DNA of 64,000 nucleotides, taken from Paracyclopina nana (taxonomy: Eukaryota; Arthropoda; Copepoda; Cyclopoida; Cyclopettidae). The position numbers and the translations under genes are program-made. This document shows positions 31,796-60,353 of this stretch, piece after piece. The stretch spans positions 3,484,501 through 3,548,500 of the forward strand of contig JAGUCH010000002.1 in the NCBI GenBank assembly GCA_019096065.1. The letters run 5' to 3'. How positions within the stretch are numbered: position 1 is the first letter of the stretch; every line of letters begins with the position of its first letter. The notes under the pieces were generated by a model. The model did no database searches. It had not been told where the DNA came from and saw nothing but the letters and a program-made list of their open reading frames with translations.

Positions 31796-31799
31796 ACTA
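31796..31799 (+). repeat. Left target-site duplication of the giant element
   Basis: ACTA immediately before the 5' LTR. The same four bases follow the 3' LTR at 56487-56490. If the LTR is taken to end one base earlier, the duplication reads AACTA (5 bp). Confidence 0.75.
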
Positions 31800-32508
31800 T
31801 GATGGACGACAAGTTCATCATGGCGTTATGATATGGAAATGGGATGACAGAAACAGAAGGAAGAAGAAGATGACTATTCAACGCAAAAATATCAACCATA
31901 ACCTCGCAACCTCCCTGTTGAATTGCATCAGAAATATGGGAAGGAAGATGAAGCTACCTGGTGAAGGGAGGTTAGCCTTGGGAGGACAAGGCAGGATTGC
32001 GAGGTAGAGGGGAGTTCTTCAGGGGACTTCAGAGAAGCAACATGTCAACCTTATAGCTAGAGGTTGACTGGTGTGAACTCTGCCAGCAGCTGGAACCTGA
32101 AGATCCTCGCCAAGTTTGACGTGTGCAGCACTGAAGAGACAGCCACAGAGAAGAAACTTTATTGTCATATATATTGTTTTGAGCTCTGATTAGAAGCAGC
32201 TGTTATGTTGTGTTGTGCCAGCTAATGAATAGAAAATACCATCAGACCTTAATGAAGTATATTAGTGCTCAACTCATAGCGAGGTCCTGATCCCTGGAAT
32301 GATCAGGGTGAAAGGGCGAGCCTTAACCACTGGTCAACTGTACATAAGCGTGCCGAGAGGTTCCTTGCCAGAAGCTGTGTACGTGAGGCTGCGGCCTCTG
32401 CATAGCGGCTCGTGAGACCTGGCAGCTCCGGTGTTGCGAATGAGTACTGGACTTGGGACCGATGCTTAACCTTCCTAGGTTCCTGAAGAGAGTACGAATT
32501 GTACACCA
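31800..32508 (+). repeat. 5' LTR of the giant element
   Basis: 709 bp, TGATGGACGAC...GTACACCA. A TATA-like CATATATATTG occurs near 32166-32176 in the middle, and could place transcription start in the second half. The sequence matches the 3' copy throughout by eye. Confidence 0.93.
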
Positions 32509-32511
32509 TTT

Positions 32512-32528
32512 TGGAGGCCCCGGAGGGA
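32512..32528 (+). promoter_or_regulatory. Primer-binding site (minus-strand primer tRNA)
   Basis: TGGAGGCCCCGGAGGGA starts 3 nt after the 5' LTR. Beginning with TGG, it would pair with a tRNA 3' end ...GGGGCCTCCA. The first 11 bases fit the acceptor end of many animal tRNA-Thr genes. The tRNA identity is inference; the position and TGG start are as expected for LTR elements. Confidence 0.7.
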
Positions 32529-33795
32529 TAGAATGGCCACTCTCTCTCTAGTGGTTTGAAGACCAAAAGAAGTCCTGGAAAAAGATGGATGGATGCGTCC
32601 TGAAGTTACCCATTTGTGGCTGTGAATTGCCGAGGGCGAGGCTGCGATGGTTAGGCGGCACTTTAGTTGCGACTGGGGTGTGTCAATACTGTAAAAGTCC
32701 TGAGGCTGACGAGCCAAGAAGGCCATCCCGGTGGAAGTGTCTATGTGTAGTCTAGCGGTAAATGCAATGAAAAAGGCACACGTACATTTCGCACCGTTGC
32801 CACATTTAGAGGTTGTGCCTAAATAGACTATATCTATGAATGGACGGCCCTAGTTTGTGAAGAAAATTCCATGGATCCTAGCCAGACAAAGTTCCTATGT
32901 TGTGTGGCTTGGTACTATCATTTCCTAAGGGAGAAGGCCCGTGGGGACGTCCTTGCTTGTCTTAAGCTGGAAAATGGGAGCCAAGCAGCCGGAAATGGTA
33001 GCCGGGTGGTGGCATGCGTGTCATTGCCCCTGTGGGCTTTAATGGGTCAATGGAGCTCAAGATGGGAGCCATTTTGGAAAGTTGAACCCGTTAGAAGCTG
33101 AAGCAGATGGAAGAACGAATAACCTGGAGCGTGTAGGGCGTGCATGGAGCTTGGGGTGGAAGCCACCCTGGAAAGTGTATGGTGCTCTGGACCAGGGCTC
33201 TTCTGGGGCGCAAAGAGTGCGCGCCTGGGCGAGCTTCGTATACCTGTGTGTGTGTGTACCTCTTTCTCTTTCCATTCACTTTGTTGAGCTTGCTCAGCAC
33301 AGTGGCGTTCAGGATTGGTAAAAGTGAATGCAACCCTTGTTTTTCAGCTTGTGGGCACTTAGGATTCTGTTGGACATCTGGTGCCTAGGTTTGGTAATAT
33401 CTCTTCTGAGCAAGTGCTCATCTTTATTCTTGTGTGTGTGTGTGTATATTTGTGTGCGTGTGGGTCTTTGGTGAAGACTACTTAGGTAAAAGTGGTCCTA
33501 ATCATTGAAATAAAAACTTGTCATAGTAATTGCAACTTTTTCTCCGAGTCACTTGACCGGCGTAAGTAGGAAGCTAACTGTGCTTTGAACAGTATTACGA
33601 TTAAAAGCTTTAGCTTTTAATTGAGTGCGATTAGAGGCCTAGTGCTTTTAAGTCGTGCGACGTAGCTCTGTACGAAAAGTTAGCATTTGTGTTAACTTAG
33701 TACAAAAACCTAGTTGAGTCTTAGAGATTAACTTCTCTGACGAAACTAAAGGACAAGTTGAGTTAAAGAGAACCTCTCTTTAGCGAAACGGAAGG
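32529..33795 (+). other. Untranslated leader of the giant element
   Basis: About 1.27 kb between primer site and gag ATG. It holds short open frames without protein character, a GT-rich microsatellite near 33433-33462, and two related words around 33060 and 33160 (GGGAGCCATTTTGGAAAGT and GGAAGCCACCCTGGAAAGT) that may be part of an RNA signal. A potential splice donor GCGTAAGTAG lies near 33559 and could serve the downstream genes. Confidence 0.5.
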
Positions 33796-36105
33796 ATGTC
33801 TCGTGATTTGAAAAATGCACTTCGAGTGCACTTGGAAGTCACTGAGATTGCTTTGGGGAAACTGCTGAAACCTTGCACTCCTACTGGGGGAAGCAGGGAG
33901 GCAGTGAAGGACTTTCTATCGTGGGTCAAGTACCCAACGTCTACTGGTACCTTGAATGTCACCAAGACAGAGGTGGTAAGGGCATGGAATGCTACACAAA
34001 TTATTGTCCTAAACACCGAGGAGCCCCTTTCTCTTGATTTGCATATTATGAAAATCATAGAGCAAATGCCCCAGGATGATCCTATTAGACAGATTATGGT
34101 GGTGGTCAGGTATGTCAATGCAATTGACCCTCCTGATCGCAATTCGGCTACGTGTGCTTTGCTCCTCTATTGTTTTGGTATGGAGTATTTGAATAAAGCA
34201 TTCAGGGAGAAGAAAACGATCATTCTTAACAGGTCTACTGATGCTGGTGAAGAGGACTTTGCTAGCCCTAATGAGGAATTGGAGCCAATAATAACAGCTC
34301 TGAGTACCATGATTAATAAAGAGAAACTTACTAACCCAGCAACAGGATTAGATGCTGTTGCTGCTTTGTTTGGATTACGGCCTGACTTCTTCTTAGAACC
34401 TGATGAGGAAGAAGGACTAGTGACCTCCACTTCGTTTGCAGTGGAGGATCCGCCAAAGGATGCTAATAAAAACAAGTCATTGGACCTGTCGGCCATCCCC
34501 AAGAAGGTTGGGTTCCAAGATGGCCAAAAATCAATTCTTACGTCCACTAAAATGACTTTGAAGGACTTGACTGTCTTAAATAATTCGGTGGTTCTGCCCC
34601 CTGGTAAGGTGGTAGAAACCACAGTAATGAAATTGTTGAAAGGAAAGACCTTGAGTCCATATGACTTGGGTGTGGTGCGAGCCCATTACACTGCGTTGCA
34701 TGATGCGAGCACTGCTAATAAAATAATAGCTACTGCCCAAATGACTGCAAAGCACATGTTTGGGGCTGACCCAAATGATATTTACGAACGAAACCTTGAA
34801 CGGGTTTTGAAATTAGCTGATGCTGCGTCCAAGGATTCATTAGTACCAGTGGCTGAGTCGGTCTACCATGAAGATGCCCCACTGGATGAAAGGATTGAAG
34901 CTATCAATATTAATGAAATAATAGATGTTGAATCTGCTAGGCGAGTTGTGTTGCAAATGGTGGATCCGGAGTTGTCACCTGGAAAAAAGGTCATTGAGAT
35001 GCAAAAACTATTTCAGGCCTTGCAGACCAGACCTGAGTTCACCCCATTGCAGCGCAAAATCTTTGTGGAATGTCACTTAAAAAGCCCTGAGGTGAGCTAT
35101 GCTGTTCCCTCGTACTCCGAACATTCGAAAAGTGTGTATGATCCTAAATACAATAAGGATTATATACCTTTGCCTCCTAATGGGCATCTGAAATTTGCCA
35201 ATACTAGTGCCCTCAAGGAGATCAGAGCAAAGTACGCTAAGAGGTTCGATATGCAAAGTTCTTCTAATACTGCTGATAGTGTGCTAGAATTCTTGCGCAC
35301 AGTGAGCACACTGGCCCGCCGGTATGACTGGAGCCATGATGCTATAATTGAAGGTTTATGCGAAGGGGCTACTGCAAGCACAGCTGAGTACTTCAGAGGT
35401 GTGGCAAGTGAAGGCGTAGAGATCCTTTGGAATGACATCTATGCTTACACCAAGAATGTCCAGGAGGTAGATGAGTTTGTAAGAATACATAACATCATCA
35501 GGAACCCCACCCAGACTTTTGATCAATCCGTTAGGGAATTGTATAAACTCAGGTTGCGAATCCATAGAGACTCTATGGATGGAGATGGCAAAGCACATGC
35601 CATTTCTGAGACGATCACTGATGCACATGCCCTACTGAAAAGGCATTGGCCTCAACAATACCAAGGGTATATCAATATATACCATGAGCATCTGTTGAAA
35701 CAAGGTACGCCCCTGAGGAGCATGGCCGCTCTATCGGAGATGGTCAAGGTAATTGGGGGCCATGTGGGGACTCACATACCGAAAACTGAGCGAGACAGAG
35801 GGGCTAGAGATGCTAGGCTACCTATGGCCCCAGCTGTTAAACACAAAGCCCATCTTGCTATGGTTGAAGTTGATGAGGACAATTTGGACAGTGCTAGCAT
35901 GCTATCAGTGATGTCACATGTTAGCTCAAAGAGTGCCAAAATAATAAGTGCTCTGCATGGTGAGTTGGCTAGAAAGAATACAGAATTGGAACGCCAAACT
36001 GCTGAAGTAGCGGCGTTAAAAGCCGAGACTGAGGCTGAGCGATCTAAAAGAATTGCAGCTACCTTTAATATCGACATTAGTAAGCTGCCGGCGAAACCCA
36101 TTTGA
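33796..36105 (+). CDS. gag: Gag-like protein of the giant element
   Basis: 769 codons from the first ATG after the leader. There are no recognisable enzymatic motifs. It is rich in alpha-helical sequence, with a probable capsid region between about residues 480 and 670. A charged coiled coil near the C-terminus (about 715-755) ends RSKR. The frame closes just before a zinc-finger segment that would normally be part of Gag and here lies in other frames (36110-36235). It is the first gene after the primer site, so its role as particle-forming Gag follows from position, length and the adjoining knuckle rather than from residue-level similarity. Confidence 0.75.
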   Translation: MSRDLKNALRVHLEVTEIALGKLLKPCTPTGGSREAVKDFLSWVKYPTSTGTLNVTKTEVVRAWNATQIIVLNTEEPLSLDLHIMKIIEQMPQDDPIRQIMVVVRYVNAIDPPDRNSATCALLLYCFGMEYLNKAFREKKTIILNRSTDAGEEDFASPNEELEPIITALSTMINKEKLTNPATGLDAVAALFGLRPDFFLEPDEEEGLVTSTSFAVEDPPKDANKNKSLDLSAIPKKVGFQDGQKSILTSTKMTLKDLTVLNNSVVLPPGKVVETTVMKLLKGKTLSPYDLGVVRAHYTALHDASTANKIIATAQMTAKHMFGADPNDIYERNLERVLKLADAASKDSLVPVAESVYHEDAPLDERIEAININEIIDVESARRVVLQMVDPELSPGKKVIEMQKLFQALQTRPEFTPLQRKIFVECHLKSPEVSYAVPSYSEHSKSVYDPKYNKDYIPLPPNGHLKFANTSALKEIRAKYAKRFDMQSSSNTADSVLEFLRTVSTLARRYDWSHDAIIEGLCEGATASTAEYFRGVASEGVEILWNDIYAYTKNVQEVDEFVRIHNIIRNPTQTFDQSVRELYKLRLRIHRDSMDGDGKAHAISETITDAHALLKRHWPQQYQGYINIYHEHLLKQGTPLRSMAALSEMVKVIGGHVGTHIPKTERDRGARDARLPMAPAVKHKAHLAMVEVDEDNLDSASMLSVMSHVSSKSAKIISALHGELARKNTELERQTAEVAALKAETEAERSKRIAATFNIDISKLPAKPI

Positions 36106-36109
36106 AACA

Positions 36110-36235
36110 GGTGGATGCCTGTTCTGCAATGGGACCCACTATGCCAAAAGTTGCGAGAACTATCCAGGTGTTTCACTGGATGAGTAAAAAAGGATGGCAC
36201 TGTGTGTATATCTTGTAAAGGATTACACAAGGTCA
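36110..36235 (+). pseudogene. Out-of-frame gag zinc-knuckle segment
   Basis: In the frame one base after that of gag, the sequence encodes CLFCNGTHYAKSC (CX2CX3HX4C), a finger spacing seen in BEL/Pao Gag proteins. A second Cys/His cluster, CISCKGLHKVINGLPC, follows in the original gag frame. The two fingers and the preceding gag frame are separated by two frame changes within about 100 bp. One falls in a run of six A at 36186-36191. Either this copy is damaged or the assembly has residual indels here. Confidence 0.65.
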
Positions 36236-36248
36236 TAAATGGATTACC

Positions 36249-39200
36249 GTGCTGGAAGTCGAGACAAGCACGAAGGTAATGTCTGAAATGGAAGAAGAAC
36301 CTAAAACAGACACTACACTTGATGATTGTTATGTTCTGCCCTCATTTATGCGTGGAGAATGTAACAAAGAAGTAGGGAGAGTGTATTTTGATCATCTAAA
36401 AGCACTCTCAGAAAAGAGAAAACAGTGCGCAAAGAGGCCTGATGAAAAAACCTCAAGTGCCATTGTTTTGGCCATATCTGGTTCTCAGTACATGAATGAG
36501 ACTAAAGATGGGTTAACCCCACCTAGGATGTGGAAAGGAATATTGTTATGGGTAATTGTGATGCTAGCTTTGGTGCTGTGGCTGAACAATTATGACCAAG
36601 TCGTGCCTGTAGCGATAGTATACATTATAATAATGGTATGCTGGTGTATGTGCTGGTTTTTTCCAGACACATCCCACACGTATGATGTACCTGTACATGT
36701 GGCGAAGCTAACTGCTGGCTGCATTGAAACTCCGGATGAAAATGTACAGCCAGAAGGGATCATTAAAGATGATGACATGCTAAGTGTATTTTCCTTAAAA
36801 CTACACAATGTGTGTGAAAGGTACTACATACCTGTCCAAATTACAGGCCAGATAAGACTTCATGCCTTATTTGACAGTGGAGCAATGGTTCAAATCATAT
36901 CTCGCACACTAGTAAGGTTAGTTGAAGAAAAATTGGGTTACTCATTACCGCGAGTTCAAACCAATTATCTTATTAAGAATTTCAATGGGGAAGAATTTCC
37001 CAGCACTGAAGGCGTGGTTCTGCAAGTCGCCTTTAACAATAGAGTACTGATTAGACAAGCAGTGTTCTTAGTCTCTGACTGTGAGACCCTGCTTATGATT
37101 GGGAATTCGTTATTAGTAGATAACAACATACGCTTGACTAGTAGGGATGGAAGTCATTTTATTGATTTCCCAGGGCGAATAAAATATAAAAAGATTCCCC
37201 TAGTCCTTACTAAGGAAGCGTTTTACCCTGTAGCTATAAATGAAAGTATTACTGTGCTACCTGGAAGGGAAGTGACAGTTAATGCTAGCTTTCCGCATGA
37301 GATACCTTTGGTAGCTGAGCCCATTCTTGGTGATTCAGACGCCGAAGTGGACCATGATGAAGTTAAAGTAAAGCCAGAAAGTAAAAGCGTTTACTCTAGC
37401 TTTCATGATAAGTGTTTGGAATTTAGTCCGGATGAGGATTATACCAGCGCTACTGCTGAAGGATGTGTTACTTCTGTGACCCGGAAGGGCACTTTTCCAG
37501 TGCAGATAGGTAATAATTCTGACGAGCCCATTTACATTGAGGCTCATTCTATCATAGGAAAGGCTAATATTGTTAAGAAACAACGCTATAAGCCTACCCA
37601 AATAGTGCATAAGTTAAACCTCAGTTTAAAGTCTTTGAACCATATAGTGGACACTTGCTATTGTGAGTTTATTGACACGCATATTTTGGTGCAATTTGTT
37701 GACATAAATGGATTAGCTTTCACTGACATGCACACCTTTAATGAACAAGTTCACATAAAGGGTAATGTTAAACAAAAGCTAACCAGACATTGGAACCATG
37801 TTTTCATTGCCTCTAACCAATCTGATGGTTTTGAGGAAATCACTGATGACTTATTGATAGAGTTTGTCAGTAAATGGAACTGGAATAGCCTACCATGGGT
37901 AGTTGTTGTCCCTAGTGACAAATTATTGTCTGGGGAACAAAAGCGGATTATATTAAAGCTCAACTCTATAGTTGAAAAACTAAGTGTAGTTTGGGTAAAA
38001 TACAAAAACGTTCATGATAAATGTAGGACTATAGCTCTCACTCCTATAGAGAATTACCTGGCTGGTATGGAGAGAGTGGTGCTAACTATCATGGTTCATA
38101 GTTATGATTGCTTTCCTGTTGCTTATCAAAGAAATGGAAATGATAAATATTACGAATTCACTATCTTGGGTGCTCCCACCGTCATGTATAAGATAGCAAA
38201 TGATATAGAACTAATGATCCATGTGCCTTGCCCCAAATCAAGGGATGTTGGTTACATGGCTACCTTAGTTTACAATATATTTGGCCACTTACGTTACAAA
38301 TGTGTGGCTGATAATATATGGGTGAGAACCTTAATGGATGGTGATGTGTCAGTAGAAGAACCTGTGTGTTTAGCAGTGTCTTCTGCATTGTTATTACTAT
38401 CGGGCTTGCCTATGTATCCACATGAATCTACATTTGAGGATATAAAGACAAAGTTTGGTGGTTTTATACCTTTTGAGTTTAAGCCAGAAAATTGTGCTTG
38501 TGCTCTTTGTCTAGCTAACCGTGCTGGGTCTAAGATAGTGTGTAAAAGTTACACTACAATATATGAAGGCCCTATAGCTGATCTTTGTGTCAGGCAAACG
38601 GTAATTAAAAACCCATCTGAATTGGACCTAGTGTCCGCTTCTTTAGAAATAACGCAAGACGAGGCAAAGAATCAGAGGCTGTATGAAGAGGTTTATAACC
38701 TTTTATTGCAGTTCCCTAGTGAATTTGACCCACATCGAGTTCTAAATGGAGTAGCTGGCTACACCTTTCCATTGGAACTTGACACCGTCTTAAAGTTTGA
38801 CCTGGACCACATACCAGTGGAAGTCAGAGAAGACTACAGGAATATATTGATAGAATATAAGGACATCTTCTCTGATGATCCGAGATCTTTTAGGTTATGG
38901 AATGTGGACCCCGTAAAGTTTCAATTGAAGGACAATAAACCCCTGGTACCGAAGGTGTTTAACATGTCTGAATATGAAACCACTCAAGTGGATAGAAAGA
39001 TATCATTGATGTTATCTTCTGGTCTAATTGAGATAGTAGATAAGTCTTTGAATAGGTACTCTGCTTGTCCTTGCTTCTTGACATCAAGGCCAAACGATGA
39101 AAAGTTACCTATGAAACAACGTAAACCTAGGTTATTAGTGGACCTGACGTCCTTTAATAAGAACCTAATTTTCACGCCATCTGAACATATTGTTCCACCT

Positions 39201-39254
39201 ATTCCCTACATTATTAGGGATGCTTTCGAACTCATGTTTGATGTCATCTTTTGA
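36249..39254 (+). CDS. pol: Pol segment 1: membrane hairpin, retropepsin, and N-terminal half of RT
   Basis: An open frame of about 1000 codons, with a first ATG at 36279. Two hydrophobic segments lie close together at about 36531-36663 (ILLWVIVMLALVLWL and VAIVYIIIMVCWCMCWFF), unusual upstream of a protease. The retropepsin site ALFDSGAMVQIIS is at about 36867-36905. A long region of unknown function follows. The end is a Ty3/gypsy-like RT start, with the words ISLMLSSGLIEIV and RKPRLLVDLTSFNK. The frame stops at 39254 within the RT fingers/palm, next to a short near-duplication (TTTGATGTCA twice). The remaining RT motifs continue in another frame. Confidence 0.8.
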   Translation: MLEVETSTKVMSEMEEEPKTDTTLDDCYVLPSFMRGECNKEVGRVYFDHLKALSEKRKQCAKRPDEKTSSAIVLAISGSQYMNETKDGLTPPRMWKGILLWVIVMLALVLWLNNYDQVVPVAIVYIIIMVCWCMCWFFPDTSHTYDVPVHVAKLTAGCIETPDENVQPEGIIKDDDMLSVFSLKLHNVCERYYIPVQITGQIRLHALFDSGAMVQIISRTLVRLVEEKLGYSLPRVQTNYLIKNFNGEEFPSTEGVVLQVAFNNRVLIRQAVFLVSDCETLLMIGNSLLVDNNIRLTSRDGSHFIDFPGRIKYKKIPLVLTKEAFYPVAINESITVLPGREVTVNASFPHEIPLVAEPILGDSDAEVDHDEVKVKPESKSVYSSFHDKCLEFSPDEDYTSATAEGCVTSVTRKGTFPVQIGNNSDEPIYIEAHSIIGKANIVKKQRYKPTQIVHKLNLSLKSLNHIVDTCYCEFIDTHILVQFVDINGLAFTDMHTFNEQVHIKGNVKQKLTRHWNHVFIASNQSDGFEEITDDLLIEFVSKWNWNSLPWVVVVPSDKLLSGEQKRIILKLNSIVEKLSVVWVKYKNVHDKCRTIALTPIENYLAGMERVVLTIMVHSYDCFPVAYQRNGNDKYYEFTILGAPTVMYKIANDIELMIHVPCPKSRDVGYMATLVYNIFGHLRYKCVADNIWVRTLMDGDVSVEEPVCLAVSSALLLLSGLPMYPHESTFEDIKTKFGGFIPFEFKPENCACALCLANRAGSKIVCKSYTTIYEGPIADLCVRQTVIKNPSELDLVSASLEITQDEAKNQRLYEEVYNLLLQFPSEFDPHRVLNGVAGYTFPLELDTVLKFDLDHIPVEVREDYRNILIEYKDIFSDDPRSFRLWNVDPVKFQLKDNKPLVPKVFNMSEYETTQVDRKISLMLSSGLIEIVDKSLNRYSACPCFLTSRPNDEKLPMKQRKPRLLVDLTSFNKNLIFTPSEHIVPPIPYIIRDAFELMFDVIF

Positions 39255-39720
39255 TGTCACCTCAGGATATGACAATTTACCTGTCGATTCTGACAGTGCA
39301 GATATGTGCTGCCTAGCTGTGACGTCACCACGGTCTAGGTATAGAGGCCTTTATTTGAAAAGTAAGGCTATATTGCAGGGTACGGCCTTGGCTGTGAGAG
39401 AATTTTCATCTTTATTAATTCAGGCAATTAATCCTGAAATATTACCTTTCACTTGTGTCTATGTAGACGATTTATTGGTCTCTTGCAAGAATCCGGACAA
39501 ACCGAAGCCGGCAACTCTAGACGATTATAAGAGGCATTTAGGTGATCTCAGGAAACTGTTTGACAGTTTAAGGGAACTAAATGCATTATTACAAATCAAA
39601 AAGACTCAATTAGGGGTCAAGGAAGCTACAGTCCTTGGACACCTCATAAAAATTGATGAGCATGGAGTTATGACGATGCAGATGCCTGATAAATACAGGA
39701 CTGCGTTTGATGACTTCGAT
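39190..39720 (+). CDS. pol: Pol segment 2: RT catalytic core
   Basis: It carries the first palm aspartate in SSFDVTSGYDNLPV and the catalytic box YVDDLLVSC (39460-39486), with a thumb-like helix after it. Residues match the Ty3/gypsy type (SGY word, then YVDD). The frame leaves RT homology near 39715, where the connection domain continues in the next frame. The overlap with segment 1 is only the shadow around the break. Confidence 0.78.
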
Positions 39721-40702
39721 GCCTTCAACAAAGAAGCAATTACAAAAGTTCATTGGTATGACCAACTGGTTAAGCCAATATTGTCCTAACATGGCCACTT
39801 ACACGGCACCTCTATTGGATGTAATGGCAACTAAACAGGGGAAAACAGGGAAGTTTAACTTCTCCTCTTTTCAAGAAAAATGCTTTTACAAGGTTATAGA
39901 GGAAATAAAGACAGGAATGTCCTTGGCCTTGCCTAACTTCAAGGAAGTGTATTTAGTAGTAGACTCGGGTGTAATAAGTACCTCAGCTCTACTTATGGAA
40001 ATTGATGCCAATGGGAAGGCAGTGTGTGTTGGGGCTCACAGTGCTAGATTCCCATTGTCAGTGTGCTTGTCTTACCACTCGTTTCAGCGAGAAGCATTAG
40101 GTGTATTAATGATGATACACCACTATAAAAGTATACTCTTTGCGTATGAGCGGTTAGTGATAGTAACTGATTGTCTATCGATTGCCAGTATACTGGCTAG
40201 CTCATTTACTGGTAAAGATGCTTTTACGCACAGACTTGCAGCGAGAATATACTCCTTGCCAGTAGCGTGGAAAATACGTGCTGTGCCAAGAACTGAGATT
40301 GAAATTGTTGATATATTATTGAATAAGTATCATCAAACTGAGGGAAATACAGTGTTCTTTGCACCGTATTCCATTCAATCGCAAATTACGAAGGACATTT
40401 ATGCTGGTGTTTATCCACTCCCGGAGGAAATTTCCTCTAAAGTAATAACCACGCAGGAACTTTTGACACATGTATTTGACACTTTGGTTAATTCAGGTAC
40501 TATGTCAAAGTCTTTACTACAAAAAAGATTACAATGTCTGAATGACAAGTGGGTTGAACTAATAGGTTCCTCTCCACCTTTTGTTCATGATGACACTTCC
40601 ACTATTCTTCATGCGCGTCATAAGGATGATAATGAGGTTGACAGGTTAACTGAGGTTTCGCATTCATTTGAAGGTGAAGCTAACCCTGAATCCTGTCTTT
40701 GA
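39707..40702 (+). CDS. pol: Pol segment 3: connection domain and RNase H
   Basis: The frame opens with the connection word LQKFIGMTNWLSQYCPNMA and reads into an RNase H domain: VVDSGVISTSALL, then REALGVLMMIHHYKSIL and IVTDCLSI. These correspond to the conserved acidic residues and the Y-x-x-x-E-x-E-x-x-x helix of Ty3/gypsy RNase H, partly diverged. The frame ends at 40702 near a further frame change. Confidence 0.75.
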   Translation: MMTSMPSTKKQLQKFIGMTNWLSQYCPNMATYTAPLLDVMATKQGKTGKFNFSSFQEKCFYKVIEEIKTGMSLALPNFKEVYLVVDSGVISTSALLMEIDANGKAVCVGAHSARFPLSVCLSYHSFQREALGVLMMIHHYKSILFAYERLVIVTDCLSIASILASSFTGKDAFTHRLAARIYSLPVAWKIRAVPRTEIEIVDILLNKYHQTEGNTVFFAPYSIQSQITKDIYAGVYPLPEEISSKVITTQELLTHVFDTLVNSGTMSKSLLQKRLQCLNDKWVELIGSSPPFVHDDTSTILHARHKDDNEVDRLTEVSHSFEGEANPESCL

Positions 40703-47837: not shown

Positions 47838-47945
47838 TTAGCTGAAAATAACTTTCTCAGTGAAAGAAGTAAGCTTGCCCACCAACAAAATGATCGCTAA
47901 GATAATGGCGATAAAGAATGCGAGATAAGCTGTGTACGCTGGCAT
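47838..47945 (-). CDS. Possible 35-residue membrane microprotein
   Basis: A short minus-strand frame from ATG 47945 encodes one strongly hydrophobic helix (AYLAFFIAIILAIILLVG) with a short polar tail. The segment is part of a longer open frame reaching 48131. It could be chance in a non-coding region. Only the clean membrane-helix pattern supports it. Confidence 0.22.
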   Translation of the reverse strand: MPAYTAYLAFFIAIILAIILLVGKLTSFTEKVIFS

Positions 47946-49507
47946 TTTACTTGCTTGCGCCTTATGAGCATAAAGGTTAGTACAGCAGTGAAGCTCGCTA
48001 GATGGTGCCGCTAGCCAAAAGAGTGGCTGGAACGGACAGTAAAGTTTGCAATATACAAAAGGTGTAGCAAAGGAACTATTTCCATTTGCTTCATCGACAA
48101 AATATGACCTAGAGGGATCATGAATGCGCACATGCTTTGTGGATAAGAACTACGTAGCACGCTATAACTTGAGAAGTGTGCAAACGAGGAGCATATCGCC
48201 ACATTGTACGTAAAGAAAATGTGCATCAATAAAGGCATTTAACTTTGTGACTCTGTTTGTGCTTGGGGTTCTGCCCCCTACAAGCCAAATGAGACGCTGC
48301 CGTAATAGTGGCCATAAGCTGAGTAGTTGCCTCTCCACCTCAGGTTAGACTCATAAATGAGCTCTTGGCAAATGGCGCTAATTACACGAAGGCAGTTAAT
48401 TTTTGTGGGGCTCAAAAGCGAGCCCTATCATTTAAAAGGTAAAATATGAGGGCATTGACTTGGAAAAGTTCTGAGCGTGCTGATGTGAAAAAGAGCTCAT
48501 GATAATAACCGGTGCTTCTTATGCGCCAATGAGAATGCAAATATCATCTTAGCACTCAGTCTAAGAACGAAACATTATGAATATAAATTACCGCTGTGTT
48601 AGTGCTAGGGGGCGCCACGGGTGGTAATCGTGAATCATTAATTCCACCAGTAATGTCATGCCATTATAGCGTAGAGGCATGAGAACCAAGGAGCAGTGCT
48701 TTAATGTGGACTTATTATTAATGTGCATCGAGAACCTTGCTGAAGTTTTGAAAGGTGTCGAGGCTAATATGTACTGCGTCTTTTACCAAAAGAGAAAATA
48801 AGACTGATGGAAAGATGGTACCGCAGTGTGTGCTAAACAGACCATATTTTTGTTCACTTTTTGTTCCTAGTCTCAGCTTGGGTTTTGCCCCTTGCTTGAG
48901 CTAAGGTGCGTAAGGCATCTGGGATCAGAAGAATAAAGCGATGCTCCAGGGGCTAGTCCCTTGGTTTATGGGCTTGAACTTTCTTCTTTTCTCTGCTTAT
49001 GACACCTGATTTCGGATGCCTCCACGCACCCGTATTTTTGTTGGGCGATAGCGCCCCTTAATATAGCTAATATGGAAAGTAATCTGTTCGTCGCACCGTA
49101 CAGAATTTTATGTGCAAGTGCTGAACCGAGTACGAGAAGGTTATTGTTATTACCTGCTCACGTGAGGTGACGAGATAAGACCTTAACCTCTGATTTTCTG
49201 CTATGGCTTTCTACCTGTGGAGCTAATTATAATGTGCGTGACGAACGCTGTAAATGTAGCTTTTCGCTGAGATGCGTGAAAAAGTGCGAATTAGCTATAT
49301 ACGCACATGAGAATATTGTAGTCGGCAAGGCTCAAGTTATGCCATGCTAACGTAAATATGATATGATAAGATGAGGCAGGCAAAGCAATTCGGCACTTGA
49401 AGAAGCCGTAGTTTTTGCTGAGGCCCAGACGATGATAAGTTGCTCAGCTCAGAAAACGCGAAATGATTTGCGAAAACTCAGATATCAGAAGTAAGGTGGA
49501 ACTGGCT

Positions 49508-50196
49508 TTATTGCCTGAAGGGAGGCGAGGCCGGGCCCGGCGGAAGGGTGGGCCGGGGGTGCGCCCTGTCGCCCCTCCTCGAAACCAGACAGTTCTGCAA
49601 AAATAAAAGACAGTGTCAAGGGTGATTTCATTAATCCTGATAAGGACACTTACTACACCACGCCCTCGAGGGGGTCCTCGGTCTCGGGGATCCCGAGGAG
49701 GCCGAGGACCCAGCGGGTCACCCGGGGGAGCTCCTCTGGCTCGGCCCAGACTCGGCTGACGAGCCGATACAGCCCCCGGGGCTTGGCCCGGTTGACCCAG
49801 ACCAAGCCCGGGAGCACCACCCCATAATAGGTGGCCGCCGCTGCCACGTTTATGGCGATGCCCTAGAGAATCTCTTCGGCCTGCAATGAAAAGGAAGATC
49901 GCTAAAGGGATCTAATCTGTTATGAAAAGAACTTACAACACCATCCCCCTGGCAGGTTTGGCCTTGAAGGCCCGCCAGCTGGCCTGCGGGCTCCTGGGGC
50001 AGCAGGACCGCGGACTCGGCCGCGGCCTGCCCCCCTTCGACGGGAAGGTGGGCGGGGGCAGCCGTTGCTGCTGCTGCTGCTGTTGTTTGTTCGTTTGACT
50101 GTAAAACATAAAAATGTTGTTTTATGTATAAGATTGCACTGGAATTTAAAGATTTCTGTTTGCACTTACGAAAAAACCGTCCAAAAATGGGGCCAT
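49508..50196 (-). CDS. Antisense gene B: four-exon, GC-rich gene of unknown function
   Basis: On the minus strand, exons 50196-50170, 50098-49937, 49880-49654 and 49594-49508 are bounded by good GTAAGT donors and TTGCAG or TTTACAG acceptors. The ATG at 50196 begins MAPFLDGFF. The ATG frame continues through an Ala-rich exon and meets TAG at 49865-49863, yet stays open beyond it with natural-looking sequence (YYGVVLPGLVWVNRAKPRGL). A second frame is also open across exons 2-4, very Arg/Gly/Pro-rich, and ends in TAA at 49510, overlapped by a polyadenylation signal AATAAA (49512-49507). The exons are far more GC-rich than the DNA around them. I recognise no family. Which frame is used is unresolved. 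Confidence 0.5.
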
Positions 50197-50580: not shown

Positions 50581-51589
50581 CTAATTGGAGGGCTCTGCTA
50601 CAGTGCTTGACAATGCGTGGGTGGCCTCGTTTGGTAGTTCTTGGATCACTGCCCCAGTGGTCCTCGGGACATTGACGTAGAACTGGCTCCGGTTGCGGCG
50701 CCTTTTGTTCCTTCTCCGCTTAGAGCGTTGGCTTTCATCTGTTTGCCCCTGTAAAAAAAGGCACCTGATGAGGATCTAAGGTACACAAAACGCATGGAGC
50801 AGACATCTTCATTGAGCTTTGATCCCATTAAGGAAACGAACAATTACTTACTTGTCCCAGTGGCCGCAGCACATCATAGATGGGCTCGTTCAATGATGGG
50901 CGTGAAAAGGTGGAGACATGGTAAGGGGTCGTGCCTCCACGTACCAAGATCATGTTATCAAAATTGGACAATGGCAATGAAGGCAACGGTCTCCTACTCA
51001 TAGTTTCGTAAAGTTCCGGGAAAGAGGGGTTTGCCAATGGCAAGGCCAGAGGCTCCAGCTCAACCTGGTCAATGACCTCTGCGTTCTCAACGCAGGCTCG
51101 GCATAGACAGCACCGCTTGCACCTCTTGTACAGGCGGTACAAGAAGCATGTGACCATGATTAGAAGAAGCTACGATGGCGAGGAAAAGTATTAATGACTA
51201 GCCTTGCTTAAATTCAATGGTCATAATTGGACTCACCAAAATGATCACTAGGGCCGCTACCAGGCCAACCCAATCCTGAACGCTGTACTGATCGAATTCG
51301 AAGAAACTTCGGGATGACGGTACAGAGGGGTCGATCTCCGCGGTATCCTTTGGAACAGACTCCATAGAGGTTGCAACCTCAGGGAGAGGACTAGTAGAGG
51401 CCGTGGTAACCCTAGTTGGGGTGCTGCAGTCGCCATTGTTGAAGTTCTTGTCCAAGACTCGGGCAAGGTCCACCTAGTGGTGGTTGCAAGGGTCTTTGCA
51501 GTGGGACGAACTGTCGTTGGCAATGTGCTAGTCATTGCTGTTGTAGTTGTAGCCGCCGTAGTGGTGGTGGGCAACTGGAGGAAACCCAT
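50581..51589 (-). CDS. Antisense gene A: three-exon single-pass membrane protein of unknown family
   Basis: On the minus strand, exons 51589-51237, 51169-50852 and 50748-50581 are separated by introns of 67 and 103 bp with GTGAGT/GTAAGT donors and a T-rich TTTACAG acceptor on the second intron. The first intron splits one membrane helix: DWVGLVAALVIIL on one side and LLLIMVTCFLY on the other, which strongly supports the splice. A Ser/Thr-rich ectodomain precedes it. The tail has a Cys/Lys/Arg cluster, tyrosine motifs (ELYETM, PIYDVL) and a basic run (KRRRNKRRRNRSQ) before TAG at 50581. The first ATG (51589, Thr-rich MGFLQLPTTTTAAT) is not in the same frame as the helix, and a TAG lies just upstream of the helix frame (about 51474). 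Either an unseen upstream exon supplies the start or exon 1 is damaged. Confidence 0.55.
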
Positions 51590-51916
51590 GACTTATGTAT
51601 ATAAACAACTGTAAAGTTGGGCTATTATAAGTTCAAGGGTTGATATGCTGCTGAAGACTGCGTGAAAGCTGACCAGGGCATTGCCTTTTATGCAAGAGAG
51701 CTTGACGTATGTTGCAAGACCGAGACTTGAGCAGTGGAATTTGTTGACTCAGCATCTTGGAGACAAGAGCAACGATTTCAGCGGGGAGAAATGATTCACC
51801 TCGGCAACGAGAAAATTGCGCACTATAATATGAACGTGCTGGAGAAATTATGGTAATAATAACGCTGTGAGGCGCTGTTGGTTACCTGGTTGAGAGCTAT
51901 AAAAGAAGGGGTGGAA
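51590..51916. promoter_or_regulatory. Possible divergent promoter between antisense gene A and the sense-strand gene
   Basis: About 330 bp separate two divergently oriented frames. TATATA on the minus strand (about 51598-51603) lies just upstream of the Thr-rich ATG. On the plus strand CACTATAATATG (about 51821-51832) lies some 85 bp before the ATG at 51917. A minus-strand T/C-rich tract ending in CAG near 51613 could instead be a splice acceptor. This is positional inference. Confidence 0.3.
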
Positions 51917-53512
51917 ATGAGCAGGTTCCAGTCTATGATGAACACTGCTACCGATACCACCCTCCCCAGTCTTGCCAAACTTGGTGAAGCTTTGCCTGAA
52001 AACGAGATGGACCAGAAAAAGAACGGTGAAGTCCGAACGGTTGTCGTAGTCATGATCCCGCAACTGGAGGATCATGAACATGAGGCTCTACTTATGGAAG
52101 AGGTACCTGAGGGTGTGGCCCCTGGTACCATTGATCAGGATGCATACCGGGCTAATGCCCAGTTTTGGGACGAAGAAAGTGCTGGATTAGACCAGATGGC
52201 GCTCTTTGCTGATACCCAAACTGGTGATGAGGCTGACGAGGCTGAGGGGCCTCCCTTACTTGTGAGGGGAGGTGAGGCTTCAAGGAAGGACTCTGGTGAC
52301 CAGGTTATCCACGAGAATGTAGAACATGAAGTTGCTACTGTGACTCGGGCTCCAAATGCTAGAGTTATGACTGAAAAAATGGATCAGGATGATGAAGGAC
52401 TAGCACCTACTCACAATGTTGAGGTAGCCCGTGCTGACCCAAGATTGATGAGGCCTTGCATAGTTGAGCTCCCCCTTGGGGATGAAGCTGTGAGGCTGAG
52501 GTATCCTGTGGCGTATCAGGACTTGATCCGCCCCCATTGCCGGACACCTTCAAGGCGTATAACCGTCAAGCAATGGCAGTACGAGAATTGGTCCAGAGGG
52601 GCTTTAACGAGGCCATGTTAAAAGTGGCTATCAGTAATACTCCGATGGTTAGCCGTGAGAGAGCCTTTGATATCACGGTACGCTGCAATGGCGAGGTTCT
52701 GGAGCAACCGGACTTCCGCCGCCCATTAAAGGTGTGTAACTTTGAGACTTTCGAGTTACAATTGAAGCCAGTTAGCGAGGGAGGACCGCTACCAGATTTT
52801 GTGGTGGTCTTCTTGATGTTGGGGACGCTCGGTCTTCAATTTGCCAAAGGAGGCTGCGTTCAATGACACCTATCATCGACGCACTAATGTCAGGGATTGG
52901 GCTGCGATTCAAAGTCCCTCTGCACTTAGCTACGCAGTCTACAATGTCCAAGGAAGAGACGGTGCCAGGGTACCTGTTGTGGTGTCCAAGCATCTGGCTA
53001 AACATGGCGTTGTTCAATTAAAGCCAACTCTGGATAGGTCTTTTGCCAATGCCAGGCTTTTTATGGATGTGAGCTCACCTTACTTCCAATTGCACGTTGG
53101 AACCCCGTCTTGCCTTATGCATGAGGTTGCTCAAGCCCCACGAAGAATCGATATCAAAGTTGACATGACTGCCATGCTACCTCGCGAGGTAGGCAGGTTT
53201 GTGGAAAGAGTAGAGCGCTCTAACCCCCAAGCGATGCGTTTCATCTCTGGGGCCCGCTCACTGAAGGTAGCTGAAATACAGGATCGGCCACAGAAAAACC
53301 GTCGAGGTACCCGCACTTACTTGGAGGCGGCGACCAATCAATCTGCTGGGGCCATGTCTATAAAACAAGGAGCTCCAAAAGCGAAACGTACCAAGGGTGA
53401 CAAGGAAAAGGCTCGATTGGGCCAATTAATTGTAGCCAAGATGGAGACGCTATCATCAACTGACTTGAAGTCCTTTGGAGCGGCGATAAATGAGTTTGTT
53501 GACCAATTCTAA
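51917..53512 (+). CDS. Unknown sense-strand gene of the giant element (two frame changes)
   Basis: Three open frames follow one another: 51917 to about 52530, 52537 to about 52815, and 52841-53512. In each, natural-looking protein sequence stops being open where the next begins, so I read them as one gene of about 530 codons with frame changes near a C-run at 52532-52537 and near 52815. The N-terminal third is acidic (Asp/Glu-rich). The middle has hydrophobic beta-like sequence (AFDITVRCNG). The C-terminus is basic with KAKRTKGDKEKARLGQ. No signal peptide, membrane helix, zinc finger or known domain is seen. Its position just before the envelope gene suggests a structural or regulatory accessory protein; that is inference. 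Confidence 0.5.
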
Positions 53513-53779
53513 ACATTGTATTTTGACTTTGTTGTAGATATGGATTATGAGTTTTGATCTACTTTGCTAATTGGACCTCGGGTTCTAAGTAGGTTAGACT
53601 CGAGATATACGGTATTATAAAGTAAGATATGGTCTTGTGCGCACCTGACTATACTAATAAATGTTTGGTGGGGAAGGCTGGCTCGCTTGCCTTGCCCGAA
53701 ACAAGTACCTGTTGTACATATAAAGGCGGCGTAGGCCTGGGGCCTAGTCAGTTTTTACTTGACATTCGCTGAGTTAATA

Positions 53780-55663
53780 ATGTTGGTGCTTGTGCTTTTA
53801 ACTTTGTCCGTGCCCATAATCAACAGCCGGGCTGCATCTAACGCACTATTAGATGGACCTGTATGTCACAAAGGGCATGCCTTGGTCCCTGTGCGCATGG
53901 TTTATCATCCTAAGCCTGATAAAAAGGCTATGATCATTGACACTGGTAATTTCCGCCAGCTCCTTGAAAAGACCCGTGACTCGGTGAATATGCTTGAGGA
54001 TGGGGTGGGACGATTAACGGAGGAGGTTCCTACAACTCAGACTCCCACTGATGTAGTGACCTACCAAGATAGAGAATATGTGGGTGTTAAGGCTCTCCCA
54101 ACGAAATTGGATGAGGAGTGTAAAACACTAGGACTTGATTTTAACTCGTTTATTCCGGAAAACCAAGTTGACATGGACAGAACATTAGAACTTTTGACTC
54201 AAGCAGCAGATTCTAATACTGCGACTACCTTCACGTTTTGCTTGAAGTTTCGTTTCATTGGGAACTCTCCAGTTTCACTGGATGGACGTGTTCAGTTTGA
54301 TAGAATTCCATGGAAAGAAGTTCCTAAAGCTTCCATCAAACCTGGGTTCCCATGCATAACAGGGAAGTTTACTGATAAAAAACTAGTAGAGGCCTCGTCA
54401 CATCTTTTTGACGGCACAAGCCCAGTGGGAACTATCTGTGTACGTCATAAATATGCCATTAATCATAAAGGCCGGATCAGCCATAAATTGTCCAAGGCCA
54501 AAAGTATGGTCAACCATGCTTTGACCGCTCTTAATAACCTTGCTGAAGCTGGTCGCACTACAAAATTTACTGAAGGAATGATGAAGAAAGTCAAACTTCT
54601 GGTCATTCCGGATAATATTAGTTTGGCAGTACACATGCTACGAAAGGTTAGTGACGCATTTGTAAAACTCGGCTACTTGCCCGGAGATTACAAGGAAGTG
54701 CTAGCGATGGTGGAACAAATAGTAACCTTTGCTAGAAACATTAGGCAGGTTGACAAGCGATTCAGTCTGCCCCGAGTTAACATAGCTAGTGATTTGGAGA
54801 ACCAAGCTGTGACAAATAGTGTGTATGATCCACTAACTAATACTGAAGTGGTGGGCGATAGTGTATCTCAGGGAATGATGAGTTCCCACAGTCTGGATCC
54901 TGAACCTGAAGTGACATTTAAAGTAGTGTCTAGAAGTGTTCATGGACAAGTGTTAGCAGACACATTCTTAACAAAATATAAAGATATGGCTTATGTCACT
55001 AAGGATCTACCTATTTATGGAGATTGCTATATGCATGATGCCAATGTCACTGTGTGTGGTAATAAGCATGTTACAATACCATACGGAGCCCAACAGTGTG
55101 CCAAGTTATTATTGGGCCTAGCTTTGGGTGACCCTTTTTCCGAGTGTAACATGGTCCCACTGGCTGATAATACATTGGAAGAAGTGGCTTGCCAGGAGTA
55201 CAGAGGGTTCCTGAACGTCATCAAGGACACTTCTATAAACAGGACTTGCTTAAATGACTTTAAGAATTCCATAACTTTAGTGCCTGGCTCGTACCAAGTA
55301 CTGAGCCATTGCCTGGTCACGATGGGAAGTTATAGTACTGGGTATGAAGACTCCCCATGGGAAAGTGACATTTTGAAGTTCTTTACAAAGTTTCCAGAGG
55401 AAGAGCCATTGGGTTTGTTTGACCATTGGAAAATCATACTAATTATAAGCACACTTTCAGGCTTTATTATAATTTTGTTAGTCTGCATCCTAGTGTGGAA
55501 ACGTCGGGCACTAATCCGCAGATGCTGTGGAGAGCCTGATTATGTTGAACCAAGAACTGGGCGCCGGCGGGTTAATGCCAGGCGCCTTGACAATGAAAAG
55601 GACCCCATGGAAATGGGACTGATGGGTGCAAAAAACAAACTTGGAGCTGCTACGTTAGTATAA
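53780..55663 (+). CDS. env: Envelope-like glycoprotein of the giant element
   Basis: 627 residues from the ATG at 53780. It starts with a hydrophobic signal peptide (MLVLVLLTLSVPIINSRA), has a long ectodomain with paired cysteines and some N-glycosylation sequons, then one membrane helix (about residues 549-573) and a 54-residue basic tail with CCGEPDYVEP and RRRVNARRL. A single C-terminal anchor, position directly before the 3' LTR and uninterrupted frame match retroviral or errantivirus-style Env proteins, which mediate cell entry. I see no residue-level match to a named fusion protein family and no furin-type site I would trust, so function is inferred from architecture. It would need a spliced or internal mRNA, since it lies 21 kb from the 5' LTR. 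Confidence 0.72.
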   Translation: MLVLVLLTLSVPIINSRAASNALLDGPVCHKGHALVPVRMVYHPKPDKKAMIIDTGNFRQLLEKTRDSVNMLEDGVGRLTEEVPTTQTPTDVVTYQDREYVGVKALPTKLDEECKTLGLDFNSFIPENQVDMDRTLELLTQAADSNTATTFTFCLKFRFIGNSPVSLDGRVQFDRIPWKEVPKASIKPGFPCITGKFTDKKLVEASSHLFDGTSPVGTICVRHKYAINHKGRISHKLSKAKSMVNHALTALNNLAEAGRTTKFTEGMMKKVKLLVIPDNISLAVHMLRKVSDAFVKLGYLPGDYKEVLAMVEQIVTFARNIRQVDKRFSLPRVNIASDLENQAVTNSVYDPLTNTEVVGDSVSQGMMSSHSLDPEPEVTFKVVSRSVHGQVLADTFLTKYKDMAYVTKDLPIYGDCYMHDANVTVCGNKHVTIPYGAQQCAKLLLGLALGDPFSECNMVPLADNTLEEVACQEYRGFLNVIKDTSINRTCLNDFKNSITLVPGSYQVLSHCLVTMGSYSTGYEDSPWESDILKFFTKFPEEEPLGLFDHWKIILIISTLSGFIIILLVCILVWKRRALIRRCCGEPDYVEPRTGRRRVNARRLDNEKDPMEMGLMGAKNKLGAATLV

Positions 55664-55777
55664 AGCTAAAGTTTTGTTGTATCACTTATCATTTACTATT
55701 GAGCAATCTAGTCACCTTTTTTCATATTTTAGTTCATAAAATGATGACAAAAGCTGAAAAAGTTTGGGCCGGGGTAA
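55664..55777 (+). other. 3' untranslated segment and presumed polypurine tract
   Basis: About 110 bp between env stop and 3' LTR. The purine-rich word before the LTR is broken (GCTGAAAAAGTTTGGGCCGGGGTAA), so a clean polypurine tract is not obvious; GGGCCGGGG just before the LTR is the best candidate. Confidence 0.4.
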
Positions 55778-56486
55778 TGATGGACGACAAGTTCATCATG
55801 GCGTTATGATATGGAAATGGGATGACAGAAACAGAAGGAAGAAGAAGATGACTATTCAACGCAAAAATATCAACCATAACCTCGCAACCTCCCTGTTGAA
55901 TTGCATCAGAAATATGGGAAGGAAGATGAAGCTACCTGGTGAAGGGAGGTTAGCCTTGGGAGGACAAGGCAGGATTGCGAGGTAGAGGGGAGTTCTTCAG
56001 GGGACTTCAGAGAAGCAACATGTCAACCTTATAGCTAGAGGTTGACTGGTGTGAACTCTGCCAGCAGCTGGAACCTGAAGATCCTCGCCAAGTTTGACGT
56101 GTGCAGCACTGAAGAGACAGCCACAGAGAAGAAACTTTATTGTCATATATATTGTTTTGAGCTCTGATTAGAAGCAGCTGTTATGTTGTGTTGTGCCAGC
56201 TAATGAATAGAAAATACCATCAGACCTTAATGAAGTATATTAGTGCTCAACTCATAGCGAGGTCCTGATCCCTGGAATGATCAGGGTGAAAGGGCGAGCC
56301 TTAACCACTGGTCAACTGTACATAAGCGTGCCGAGAGGTTCCTTGCCAGAAGCTGTGTACGTGAGGCTGCGGCCTCTGCATAGCGGCTCGTGAGACCTGG
56401 CAGCTCCGGTGTTGCGAATGAGTACTGGACTTGGGACCGATGCTTAACCTTCCTAGGTTCCTGAAGAGAGTACGAATTGTACACCA
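55778..56486 (+). repeat. 3' LTR of the giant element
   Basis: 709 bp, read side by side with 31800-32508 and found without difference. ACTA (56487-56490) follows it, matching the bases before the 5' LTR. Confidence 0.93.
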
Positions 56487-60327: not shown

Positions 60328-60353
60328 GCCAAAAATACTAAAAAACTTCAACA

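What the first reader, a model, noticed from the sequence alone, without database searches (positions are those of the whole stretch)
31800..56486. A 24.7-kb LTR retroelement with gag, pol, env and extra genes
Two LTRs that look identical, flanked by ACTA and with a primer site, prove that the whole 24.7 kb is one insertion and not a nest of several. Typical animal LTR elements are 5-10 kb. Here about 12 kb between pol and the 3' LTR holds a structured non-coding region, two antisense spliced genes, an unknown gene and an envelope-like gene. The combination of Ty3/gypsy-like RT with a CX2CX3HX4C gag finger is also odd. This is the best candidate for an undescribed retrovirus-like lineage.
Basis: partly seen in the sequence, partly recalled or inferred. 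Interest (0 to 1): 0.93.

Follow-up and report, generated by a model that had tools for sequence, protein, structure and literature searches.

The report
Giant retrovirus-like element with antisense genes
A 24.7-kb retrovirus-like element sits here as one recent insertion; copies of it and of a sister family are scattered through the same animal genome, and besides the usual genes they keep two spliced genes on the opposite strand, at least one of which appears to make a small membrane protein, an arrangement I did not find described for any animal element.

Summary
Identical 709-bp LTRs (31800-32508, 55778-56486), a 4-bp target duplication (ACTA) and a primer site for tRNA-Thr(AGT) bound one 24,687-bp insertion. 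The host assembly (92 Mb; arthropod-like by its myosin) holds 12 LTR pairs of this family, 11 of them 23.8-24.8 kb long, plus 3 pairs of a sibling subfamily. All 15 carry the downstream cargo, so it is not a nest. A sister family of about 23 kb (39 gag matches, 45-47% identity) has the same layout as far as tested.

Gag, Pol, an unknown protein (ORFX), an Env-like membrane protein and two antisense spliced genes show purifying selection: strong for antisense gene 1, resting on one exon for gene 2. About 5.7 kb after pol is non-coding. Pol is Ty3-like but remote. ORFX and Env had no relatives in the searches made; the antisense products were compared only with Pfam and this genome. At least one copy is a clear mosaic.

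This copy has broken frames; open frames exist in other copies. Size alone is not new (planarian Burro exceeds 30 kb); the conserved antisense module is new as far as I could find. Verdict: a new variant of a known kind.

The parts
31796..31799 (.). target-site duplication ACTA, left copy
31800..32508 (+). 5' LTR, 709 bp
   Evidence: identical to the 3' LTR; 47 genomic matches
32512..32529 (+). primer binding site, tRNA-Thr(AGT)
   Evidence: 15 nt of the tRNA gene's 3' end plus CCA
33784..36279 (+). gag; 832-aa open frame in 8 of 12 family copies; broken near its 3' end in this copy (open 33784-36105; end about 36279 by comparison)
   Evidence: dN/dS 0.10-0.16 in 4 pairs; zinc knuckle CLFCNGTHYAKSC
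36219..43757 (+). pol (two hydrophobic segments, PR, RT, RNase H, IN, long C-terminal extension); frame broken at several places in this copy; one open frame of 1684-1687 aa through the fetched 3' part in 4 of 14 other copies
   Evidence: dN/dS 0.04-0.05 in 3 pairs
36528..36665 (+). two hydrophobic, possibly membrane-spanning segments ahead of protease, also seen in the sibling subfamily
39226..39642 (+). reverse transcriptase core match (RVT_1)
   Evidence: nearest solved structure Ty3 RT
41226..41456 (+). integrase core match (rve)
43758..49506 (.). about 5.7 kb without coding signal; strongest predicted folding near 45.4 kb; imperfect 71-nt repeats at 45314 and 45447
49507..50098 (-). antisense gene 2 (AS2): exon alpha 50098-49937, exon beta 49862-49654 (69 codons, stop, GTAAGT donor), 3' exon from 49594, AATAAA at 49512-49507; upstream exon not found
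50581..51589 (-). antisense gene 1 (AS1): exon 1 51589-51237 (frame broken in this copy), exon 2 51169-50852, exon 3 50748-50581; AATAAA downstream at 50421-50416 and 50413-50408
51863..53512 (+). ORFX; 550-aa open frame in 10 of 12 family copies, 542 aa in one more, broken in this copy
   Evidence: dN/dS 0.07-0.09 within the family, 0.10-0.11 to the sibling subfamily, 0.17 inside that
53735..55663 (+). env-like gene: signal-like segment, C-terminal membrane segment, short tail; 3 N-glycosylation motifs in the copy examined (L025)
   Evidence: dN/dS 0.12-0.19 in 4 pairs
55741..55777 (+). stretch with the purine-rich tract before the 3' LTR, resembling that of the sister family
55778..56486 (+). 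3' LTR, 709 bp
56487..56490 (.). target-site duplication ACTA, right copy

Best explanation
This is one recent copy of a multicopy, giant, envelope-bearing LTR retroelement of the Ty3 type (an endogenous-retrovirus-like element). Shown from sequence: LTR-bounded insertion with a 4-bp duplication, tRNA-Thr priming site, Gag-Pol, Env-like protein, ORFX, and two opposite-strand genes between pol and ORFX, kept by selection; a sister family shares the layout as far as tested; at least one copy is a mosaic. Inferred: the full-length RNA runs from the 5' LTR and is packaged and reverse transcribed; pol is reached from gag over a 58-nt overlap in the -1 frame; ORFX and env are made from spliced or internal sense RNAs, and AS1/AS2 from antisense RNAs starting near 51.6-51.9 kb, a divergent promoter region; Env lets particles leave or enter cells; AS1 and AS2 are accessory membrane proteins, AS1 acting through its YxxL/M and proline motifs on host signalling or trafficking; co-packaged RNAs recombine.
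For: LTRs, duplication, primer site. 12 pairs plus 3 sibling pairs with cargo. 0 of 709 LTR differences and a 4-bp duplication in the 4 pairs read at both ends. dN/dS: pol 0.04-0.05, ORFX 0.07-0.17, gag 0.10-0.16, env 0.12-0.19 (hand-picked pairs). AS1 exon 2: no stops and the lowest dN/dS (0.11-0.20) of six frames in 5 of 5 comparisons (not independent), the other frames holding 5-11 stops; exon 3 lowest in 3 of 3 (0.16, 0.23, 0.40; 30-36 codons); exon 1 0.27 in the one pair tested. Splice ends at the same codons in three alleles. AS2 exon beta: 79 genomic places, 77 without a stop inside, dN/dS 0.20 between families. Sister family: gag, ORFX, env, LTRs, antisense region. RT nearest Ty3. Mosaic copy switching near 48.4 kb.
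Against: No transcripts or proteins were available, so splicing, promoters and expression are not shown. Env has no recognised relative in the searches made and no furin-like site in the copy examined, so its entry role is topology only. My scan of the gag/pol overlap found no standard slip heptamer. AS2 exon alpha is inconclusive (35 codons, dN/dS 0.40; one opposite frame scored 0.19 with one stop), and AS2 beta passes the hydrophobicity cut-off only in the sister family. Within alleles AS1 constraint is weak or absent on few changes: exon 2 0.52 (L025/L032) and 0.64 (L030/L031), exon 1 2.46 (L030/L031). AS2 beta between this copy and L040 gives only 0.42. Pol of the sister family was not tested. 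Frame breaks in this and other young copies may be assembly error or mutation.
Confidence: 0.85

Rival explanations
1. Ordinary nested insertion: a normal 8-12 kb Ty3 element into which another element or virus was inserted once.
For: The cargo holds apparently self-contained genes on both strands with AATAAA signals downstream of the antisense genes.
Against: 15 of 15 LTR pairs carry the cargo and the sister family, 45-47% identical in gag, has gag, AS2 beta, ORFX and env in the same order. The one nested copy (37.2 kb) stands out and carries a BEL/Pao match. If there was an insertion it predates both families and is now part of the element.
Confidence: 0.03
2. The 3' module (AS2, AS1, ORFX, env) was captured as a block from a DNA or negative-strand RNA virus by an ancestral Ty3 element, and still works as that virus's entry and matrix module.
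For: Divergent gene layout with AATAAA signals on both strands; ORFX and env adjacent in both families; passages of PMC6431247 report hits of a gypsy-type element's env region to mononegavirus fusion proteins.
Against: No match of ORFX or env in Pfam, solved structures, viral contigs or the protein database; structure models failed (mean pLDDT 30). AS1 and AS2 were compared only with Pfam.
Confidence: 0.3
3. The antisense frames are by-products: the region is non-coding regulatory RNA or DNA and frames stay open by chance.
For: AS2 exon alpha is inconclusive; the strip around exon beta is conserved in several frames between subfamilies, and two further frames of beta are also free of stops between families.
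Against: AS1 exon 2 has no stops and the lowest dN/dS of six frames in 5 of 5 comparisons; donors and acceptors at the same codons in three alleles; beta has no stop inside at 77 of 79 listed places and dN/dS 0.20 between families against 0.35 or more in the other five frames.
Confidence: 0.08

Closest known systems
Burro giant gypsy-type elements of planarians (PMC6431247, passages read)
   Same: animal, gypsy-type, giant (over 30 kb with LTRs), Env-like region, extra domains
   Different: Burro has a huge ORF1 polyprotein with env between gag and pol and BIR, ankyrin and BCL2-like motifs; here gag and pol are separate overlapping frames, env lies 3' of pol, no such domains were found, and there are two antisense genes
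Retand, Grande and RIRE2 elements of plants (PMC11963269, passages read)
   Different: plants; the common antisense product has a TRP28 domain, predicted to bind DNA; here the antisense genes are predicted to be spliced, AS1 predicts a membrane protein, and an Env-like gene lies beside them
Antisense genes of HTLV (HBZ, APH-2) and HIV-1 (ASP) (PMC10186651, passages read)
   Same: retroviral genes on the opposite strand; HBZ and APH-2 RNAs spliced; ASP a predicted membrane protein with Cys triplets and a PxxPxxP motif
   Different: vertebrate retroviruses whose antisense RNA starts in the 3' LTR; here the two genes lie upstream of ORFX and env and away from any long conserved sense frame
Errantiviruses such as Drosophila gypsy (recalled)
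   Same: arthropod Ty3-type element with env and a 4-bp target duplication (recalled)
   Different: about 7-8 kb; baculovirus F-like Env with furin site; no ORFX or antisense genes (recalled)
BEL/Pao elements
   Same: the CX2CX3HX4C gag finger resembles BEL/Pao gag (recalled; a term search of PMC3118150 found no mention)
   Different: Pol matched no BEL/Pao-specific Pfam family; a BEL/Pao ORF of the same genome gave E 0.43 to the RT profile

Membership tests
LTR retroelement | paired LTRs, target duplication, tRNA primer site, gag and pol | tested here: met
Ty3/gypsy (Metaviridae) | Pol order PR-RT-RNase H-IN | tested here: met
   (PR and RNase H matches are below Pfam's curated cut-offs; RT and IN above)
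Ty3/gypsy (Metaviridae) | RT closest to Ty3 among retroelement classes | tested here: met
   Ty3 RT E 4.8e-17; next 5.4e-8 (annotated Peptidase A9/RT/RNase H; foamy-type by recall), 1.4e-6, and 4e-4 or worse for the rest; 20 of 20 protein hits list PF17919; one BEL/Pao ORF E 0.43
Ty3/gypsy (Metaviridae) | firm position inside the clade in a tree | tested here: inconclusive
   22 rows, 2 of 19 inner branches strong, long branches
Errantivirus | F-like Env with furin-type cleavage site | tested here: not met
   no R-x-[KR]-R in the L025 env; no Pfam family above cut-off in 3 env proteins
BEL/Pao | Peptidase_A17 and other BEL/Pao Pfam families in Pol | tested here: not met
   RT profile against a BEL/Pao ORF E 0.43
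Burro | env in frame between gag and pol in one giant ORF with BIR/ankyrin domains | tested here: not met
   against passages of PMC6431247
Retroviridae with antisense gene (HTLV type) | antisense RNA started in the 3' LTR | not testable with these tools
   no transcript data
Retand-type elements | antisense TRP28 (PF04195) protein | tested here: not met
   the AS1 and AS2 pieces scanned gave no Pfam match better than E 2.3 (Mucin)

The most novel reading that the evidence does not exclude
A previously undescribed, at least genus-level lineage of complex invertebrate retrovirus-like elements (23-25 kb) that carries a second, divergently transcribed regulon: ORFX and env one way and two spliced genes for small signalling-type membrane proteins the other way, exchanged between co-replicating genomes by recombination.
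Probability: 0.5. Interest if true: 0.9.

Novelty: new variant of a known kind. Interest (0 to 1): 0.78.

Why it matters
Complex retroviruses with regulatory and accessory genes are known mainly from vertebrates (recalled). A multicopy, recently active element of an arthropod-like host with six conserved genes, two of them antisense and spliced, would show the same kind of complexity evolving separately, with open frames in several copies for direct study. It also bears on how long an LTR genome can be and still copy itself, and gives an Env-like protein and ORFX for which no relatives were found here.

Tried and rejected
Nest of insertions: rejected. BEL/Pao membership suggested by the gag finger: rejected for Pol. 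Homologues of env and ORFX in about 5.8 billion proteins (in each only the nearly 8,000 candidates sharing most words were scored), in solved structures (one chance-level hit, E 0.27) and in viral contigs (pol): none; env against phage records: none. AlphaFold models of ORFX and env: mean pLDDT 30 and 31, so no fold search was run. RNA families over the element: one hit far below its cut-off, taken as chance. RT tree with 18 of the 20 Ty3-type hits (P0012 and P0016 gave no usable segment), 3 element rows and 1 BEL/Pao row: unresolved. P0007 grouped with the element at 89/82, a join the program flagged as unsafe; identity 24%. In one search the AS2 beta comparison with L040 (1.06) is unreliable because that copy has an in-frame stop, which I believe the aligner dropped, with the stop masked, gave 0.42. 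Rows left out before counts: dN/dS pairs were hand-picked from copies with open frames or from pieces searched apart, not all pairs.
Full report
WHAT WAS CHECKED FIRST. The two LTRs are 709 bp (31800-32508 and 55778-56486) with no difference, start TG, end CA and are flanked by ACTA. Three bases after the 5' LTR lies an 18-nt site (32512-32529) complementary to the last 15 nt of a tRNA-Thr(AGT) gene of the same genome plus the CCA that is added to tRNAs. A purine-rich tract precedes the 3' LTR and resembles that of the sister family.

ONE ELEMENT, MANY COPIES. The window lies in a 92-Mb assembly of 10 contigs. The LTR gave 47 matches: 24 form 12 pairs over the full LTR, 3 are nearly full single LTRs and 20 are partial, among them 3 pairs of a sibling subfamily. 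Eleven of the 12 pairs span 23.8-24.8 kb; the twelfth spans 37.2 kb and contains a BEL/Pao match. ORFX, env and AS1 exon 2 occur in 15 of 15 pairs and AS2 exon beta in 14 of 15. Four pairs were read at both LTRs: 4 of 4 have identical LTRs and a 4-bp duplication (TTAT, ACTA, TAAT, CCAA). The insertions are therefore recent; no mutation rate is known, so no age is given.

HOST. The myosin heavy chain in the window scores best against three full-length chains (2160, 2142 and 2052 bits) that I recall as giant water bug, fruit fly and tarantula; the next, Myosin-7, has 1641 (best 60 of 144 shown; the call names no organisms). I take the host to be an arthropod or near relative; the solved-structure library lacks many phyla, so this is an inference.

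GAG AND POL. Gag is open over 832 aa in 8 of the 12 family copies; this copy is broken near its end. It carries the finger CLFCNGTHYAKSC. Pol overlaps gag by 58 nt in the -1 frame; my scan of that overlap in one copy found no X XXY YYZ heptamer. Pol starts with two hydrophobic segments also seen in the sibling subfamily, then protease, RT, RNase H, integrase and a long C-terminal extension. In 4 of 14 fetched copies the 3' part of pol is one open frame of 1684-1687 aa; in the window it is four overlapping pieces. The nearest solved RT is Ty3 (E 4.8e-17); the best of 20 protein-database hits has 23% identity. A tree did not resolve the placement.

NON-CODING STRETCH. From 43.8 to 49.4 kb substitutions show no codon periodicity against the divergent copy L039 (26 of 28 bins at 33-57% in one phase; the exceptions had 9 and 2 substitutions), whereas 8 ORFX/env control bins gave 52-85%. 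Predicted folding is strongest at 43.8-45.7 kb. Only short blocks align with the sibling subfamily.

ANTISENSE GENE 1 (AS1). Opposite-strand exons 51589-51237, 51169-50852 and 50748-50581 (this copy has a frame break in exon 1). Three alleles (A: this copy and relatives; B and C: other copies) have the same three exons, with GT and AG at the same codons and phase 0; the fuller donor GTRAG is present at donor 1 in A and B only, and at donor 2 in A, B and one of two C copies. A and B do not align as DNA across the middle of this gene (0 of 500 nt in the 50.9-51.4 kb bin in 3 of 3 B copies) while the bins on either side are about 87-96% identical. In exon 2 the gene frame has no stop and dN/dS 0.11-0.20 in 5 of 5 comparisons, which share sequences; the other five frames hold 5-11 stops, and the lowest dN/dS among them is 0.23-0.49. 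Exon 3 was also lowest in its gene frame in 3 of 3 (0.16, 0.23, 0.40; 30-36 codons, the last only just), exon 1 0.27 in one pair against 0.32 for the next frame, which has stops. Weak or contrary values: 0.52 and 0.64 for two close pairs of exon 2 and 2.46 for one close pair of exon 1 with almost no changes. Predicted product: Thr-rich N-terminal part, one hydrophobic segment interrupted by intron 1, a Cys cluster, a tail with YETM or YETL, PLPSLP and YDVL, and a basic last exon. In the sister family (L055) a very diverged gene has its first donor at the matching codon (exon 1 match E 4.6e-5), YGTL and IYDVL in the exon 2 frame and a basic stretch after it; its second donor is in another phase, so exon 3 there is tentative. 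A genome search with exon 2 of allele B found 16 places, 15 in the LTR pairs of this family and its sibling and one in a decayed copy, none in the sister family.

ANTISENSE GENE 2 (AS2). Exons alpha 50098-49937, beta 49862-49654 and a 3' exon from 49594 with AATAAA at 49512-49507. Beta (69 aa) was found at 79 places, 77 of them without a stop inside: 15 at 81% identity or more, 56 at 66-78% (sister family), one at 55% and 7 at 45-51% of unknown nature. Between families dN/dS is 0.20 over 68 codons; two other frames are also free of stops there but score above 1. The donor overlapping the stop codon and the flanking acceptors recur in the sister family. Alpha is inconclusive, and a further upstream exon is likely but not found. 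Beta begins with a moderately hydrophobic stretch that passes my cut-off in the sister family (1.72) but not here, so 'membrane protein' is weaker than for AS1.

ORFX AND ENV. ORFX is open over 550 aa in 10 of 12 family copies and 542 in another, broken here; 3 of 3 sibling copies have 547-548 aa. Its first 200 residues are variable and look acidic; the rest is mostly 45-47% identical to the sister family. Env-like: signal-like segment, 3 N-glycosylation motifs, C-terminal hydrophobic segment, short tail, no furin-like site in the copy examined. Of 12 family copies, 5 have no stop in the aligned env frame, 4 have one (in the leader part in the two of them read here, this copy and L032), and 3 are split between frames; the 3 sibling copies have stops. 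Neither protein had a relative in the searches made.

SISTER FAMILY. In the same genome 39 of 56 listed gag matches (45-47%), 60 of 80 ORFX matches (39-50%) and 47 of 67 env matches (41-49%) belong to it by identity; these lists are lower bounds. One copy on contig C4 shows the order LTR, gag, AS2 beta on the other strand, ORFX, env, LTR over about 23 kb. Its pol could not be searched, because the request did not complete.

MOSAICS. One copy (C4:9027721) is 98.4-100% identical to the window in 500-bp bins up to about 48.4 kb (99% or more in all but one), then 90.6-97.2% where it aligns, with allele B, to about 55.4 kb, and 99.6% in the last bin; in the divergent part its values run nearly with those of another copy (C3:6239341). 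C2:92724 has shorter dips at 34.4-36.9 and 48.4 kb. This fits template switching between co-packaged RNAs; gene conversion is an alternative.

HOW IT MOST LIKELY WORKS. Established for Ty3-type elements (recalled): LTR-driven RNA, tRNA-primed reverse transcription in Gag particles, integrase-made short duplications. Inferred for this one: Env gives particles a way between cells; ORFX may be a structural or matrix-like partner; AS1 and AS2 come from antisense RNAs starting between AS1 and ORFX and act at membranes.

KNOWN OR NOT. Giant animal elements exist: Burro exceeds 30 kb (passages of PMC6431247). Antisense genes 3' of pol are known in plant Retand-type elements (passages of PMC11963269) and in vertebrate retroviruses (passages of PMC10186651). 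I found no animal LTR element with two conserved spliced antisense genes in searches (listings only); that library lacks most subscription papers.

Noticed in passing
window 20065-23753 and 60311-64000: Two muscle-type myosin heavy-chain genes in tandem, 91.7% identical over 3.7 kb, the second cut by the window's end; the element sits between them. The first has a 1,686-codon frame without stop.
   Followed up: partly
G000, e.g. C4:6678406, C3:4743164: The genome holds at least 150 BEL/Pao (Peptidase_A17) matches, 149 of the 150 scored without a stop inside.
   Followed up: no
G000 C2:884089, C3:3138218, C3:3609340, C5:6528305, C3:2723329, C1:9472874, C7:4161976: Seven places encode a 45-51% relative of AS2 exon beta but lie away from the listed ORFX and env matches: a third element family or a host gene.
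   Followed up: no
window gag end, pol 39.1-40.7 kb, ORFX 52.4-52.9 kb: Frame breaks of this copy are absent from several other young copies although its LTRs are identical; against six copies 1-nt indels in 5 kb of pol number 1-3 each (11 in all, 8 of them in runs of three or more) plus 2 longer ones each. Assembly error or mutation made during copying.
   Followed up: partly
window 1153-2556 minus: GC-rich frame with weak PNMA and zinc-knuckle matches, below Pfam cut-offs: possibly another retroelement gag or a domesticated one.
   Followed up: no
window 27874-28270: Tandem array of a 171-bp unit, about 2 copies.
   Followed up: no
G000 C6:6501187-6517421: A further decayed copy appears to lie next to the sibling-subfamily copy on C6.
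   Followed up: no
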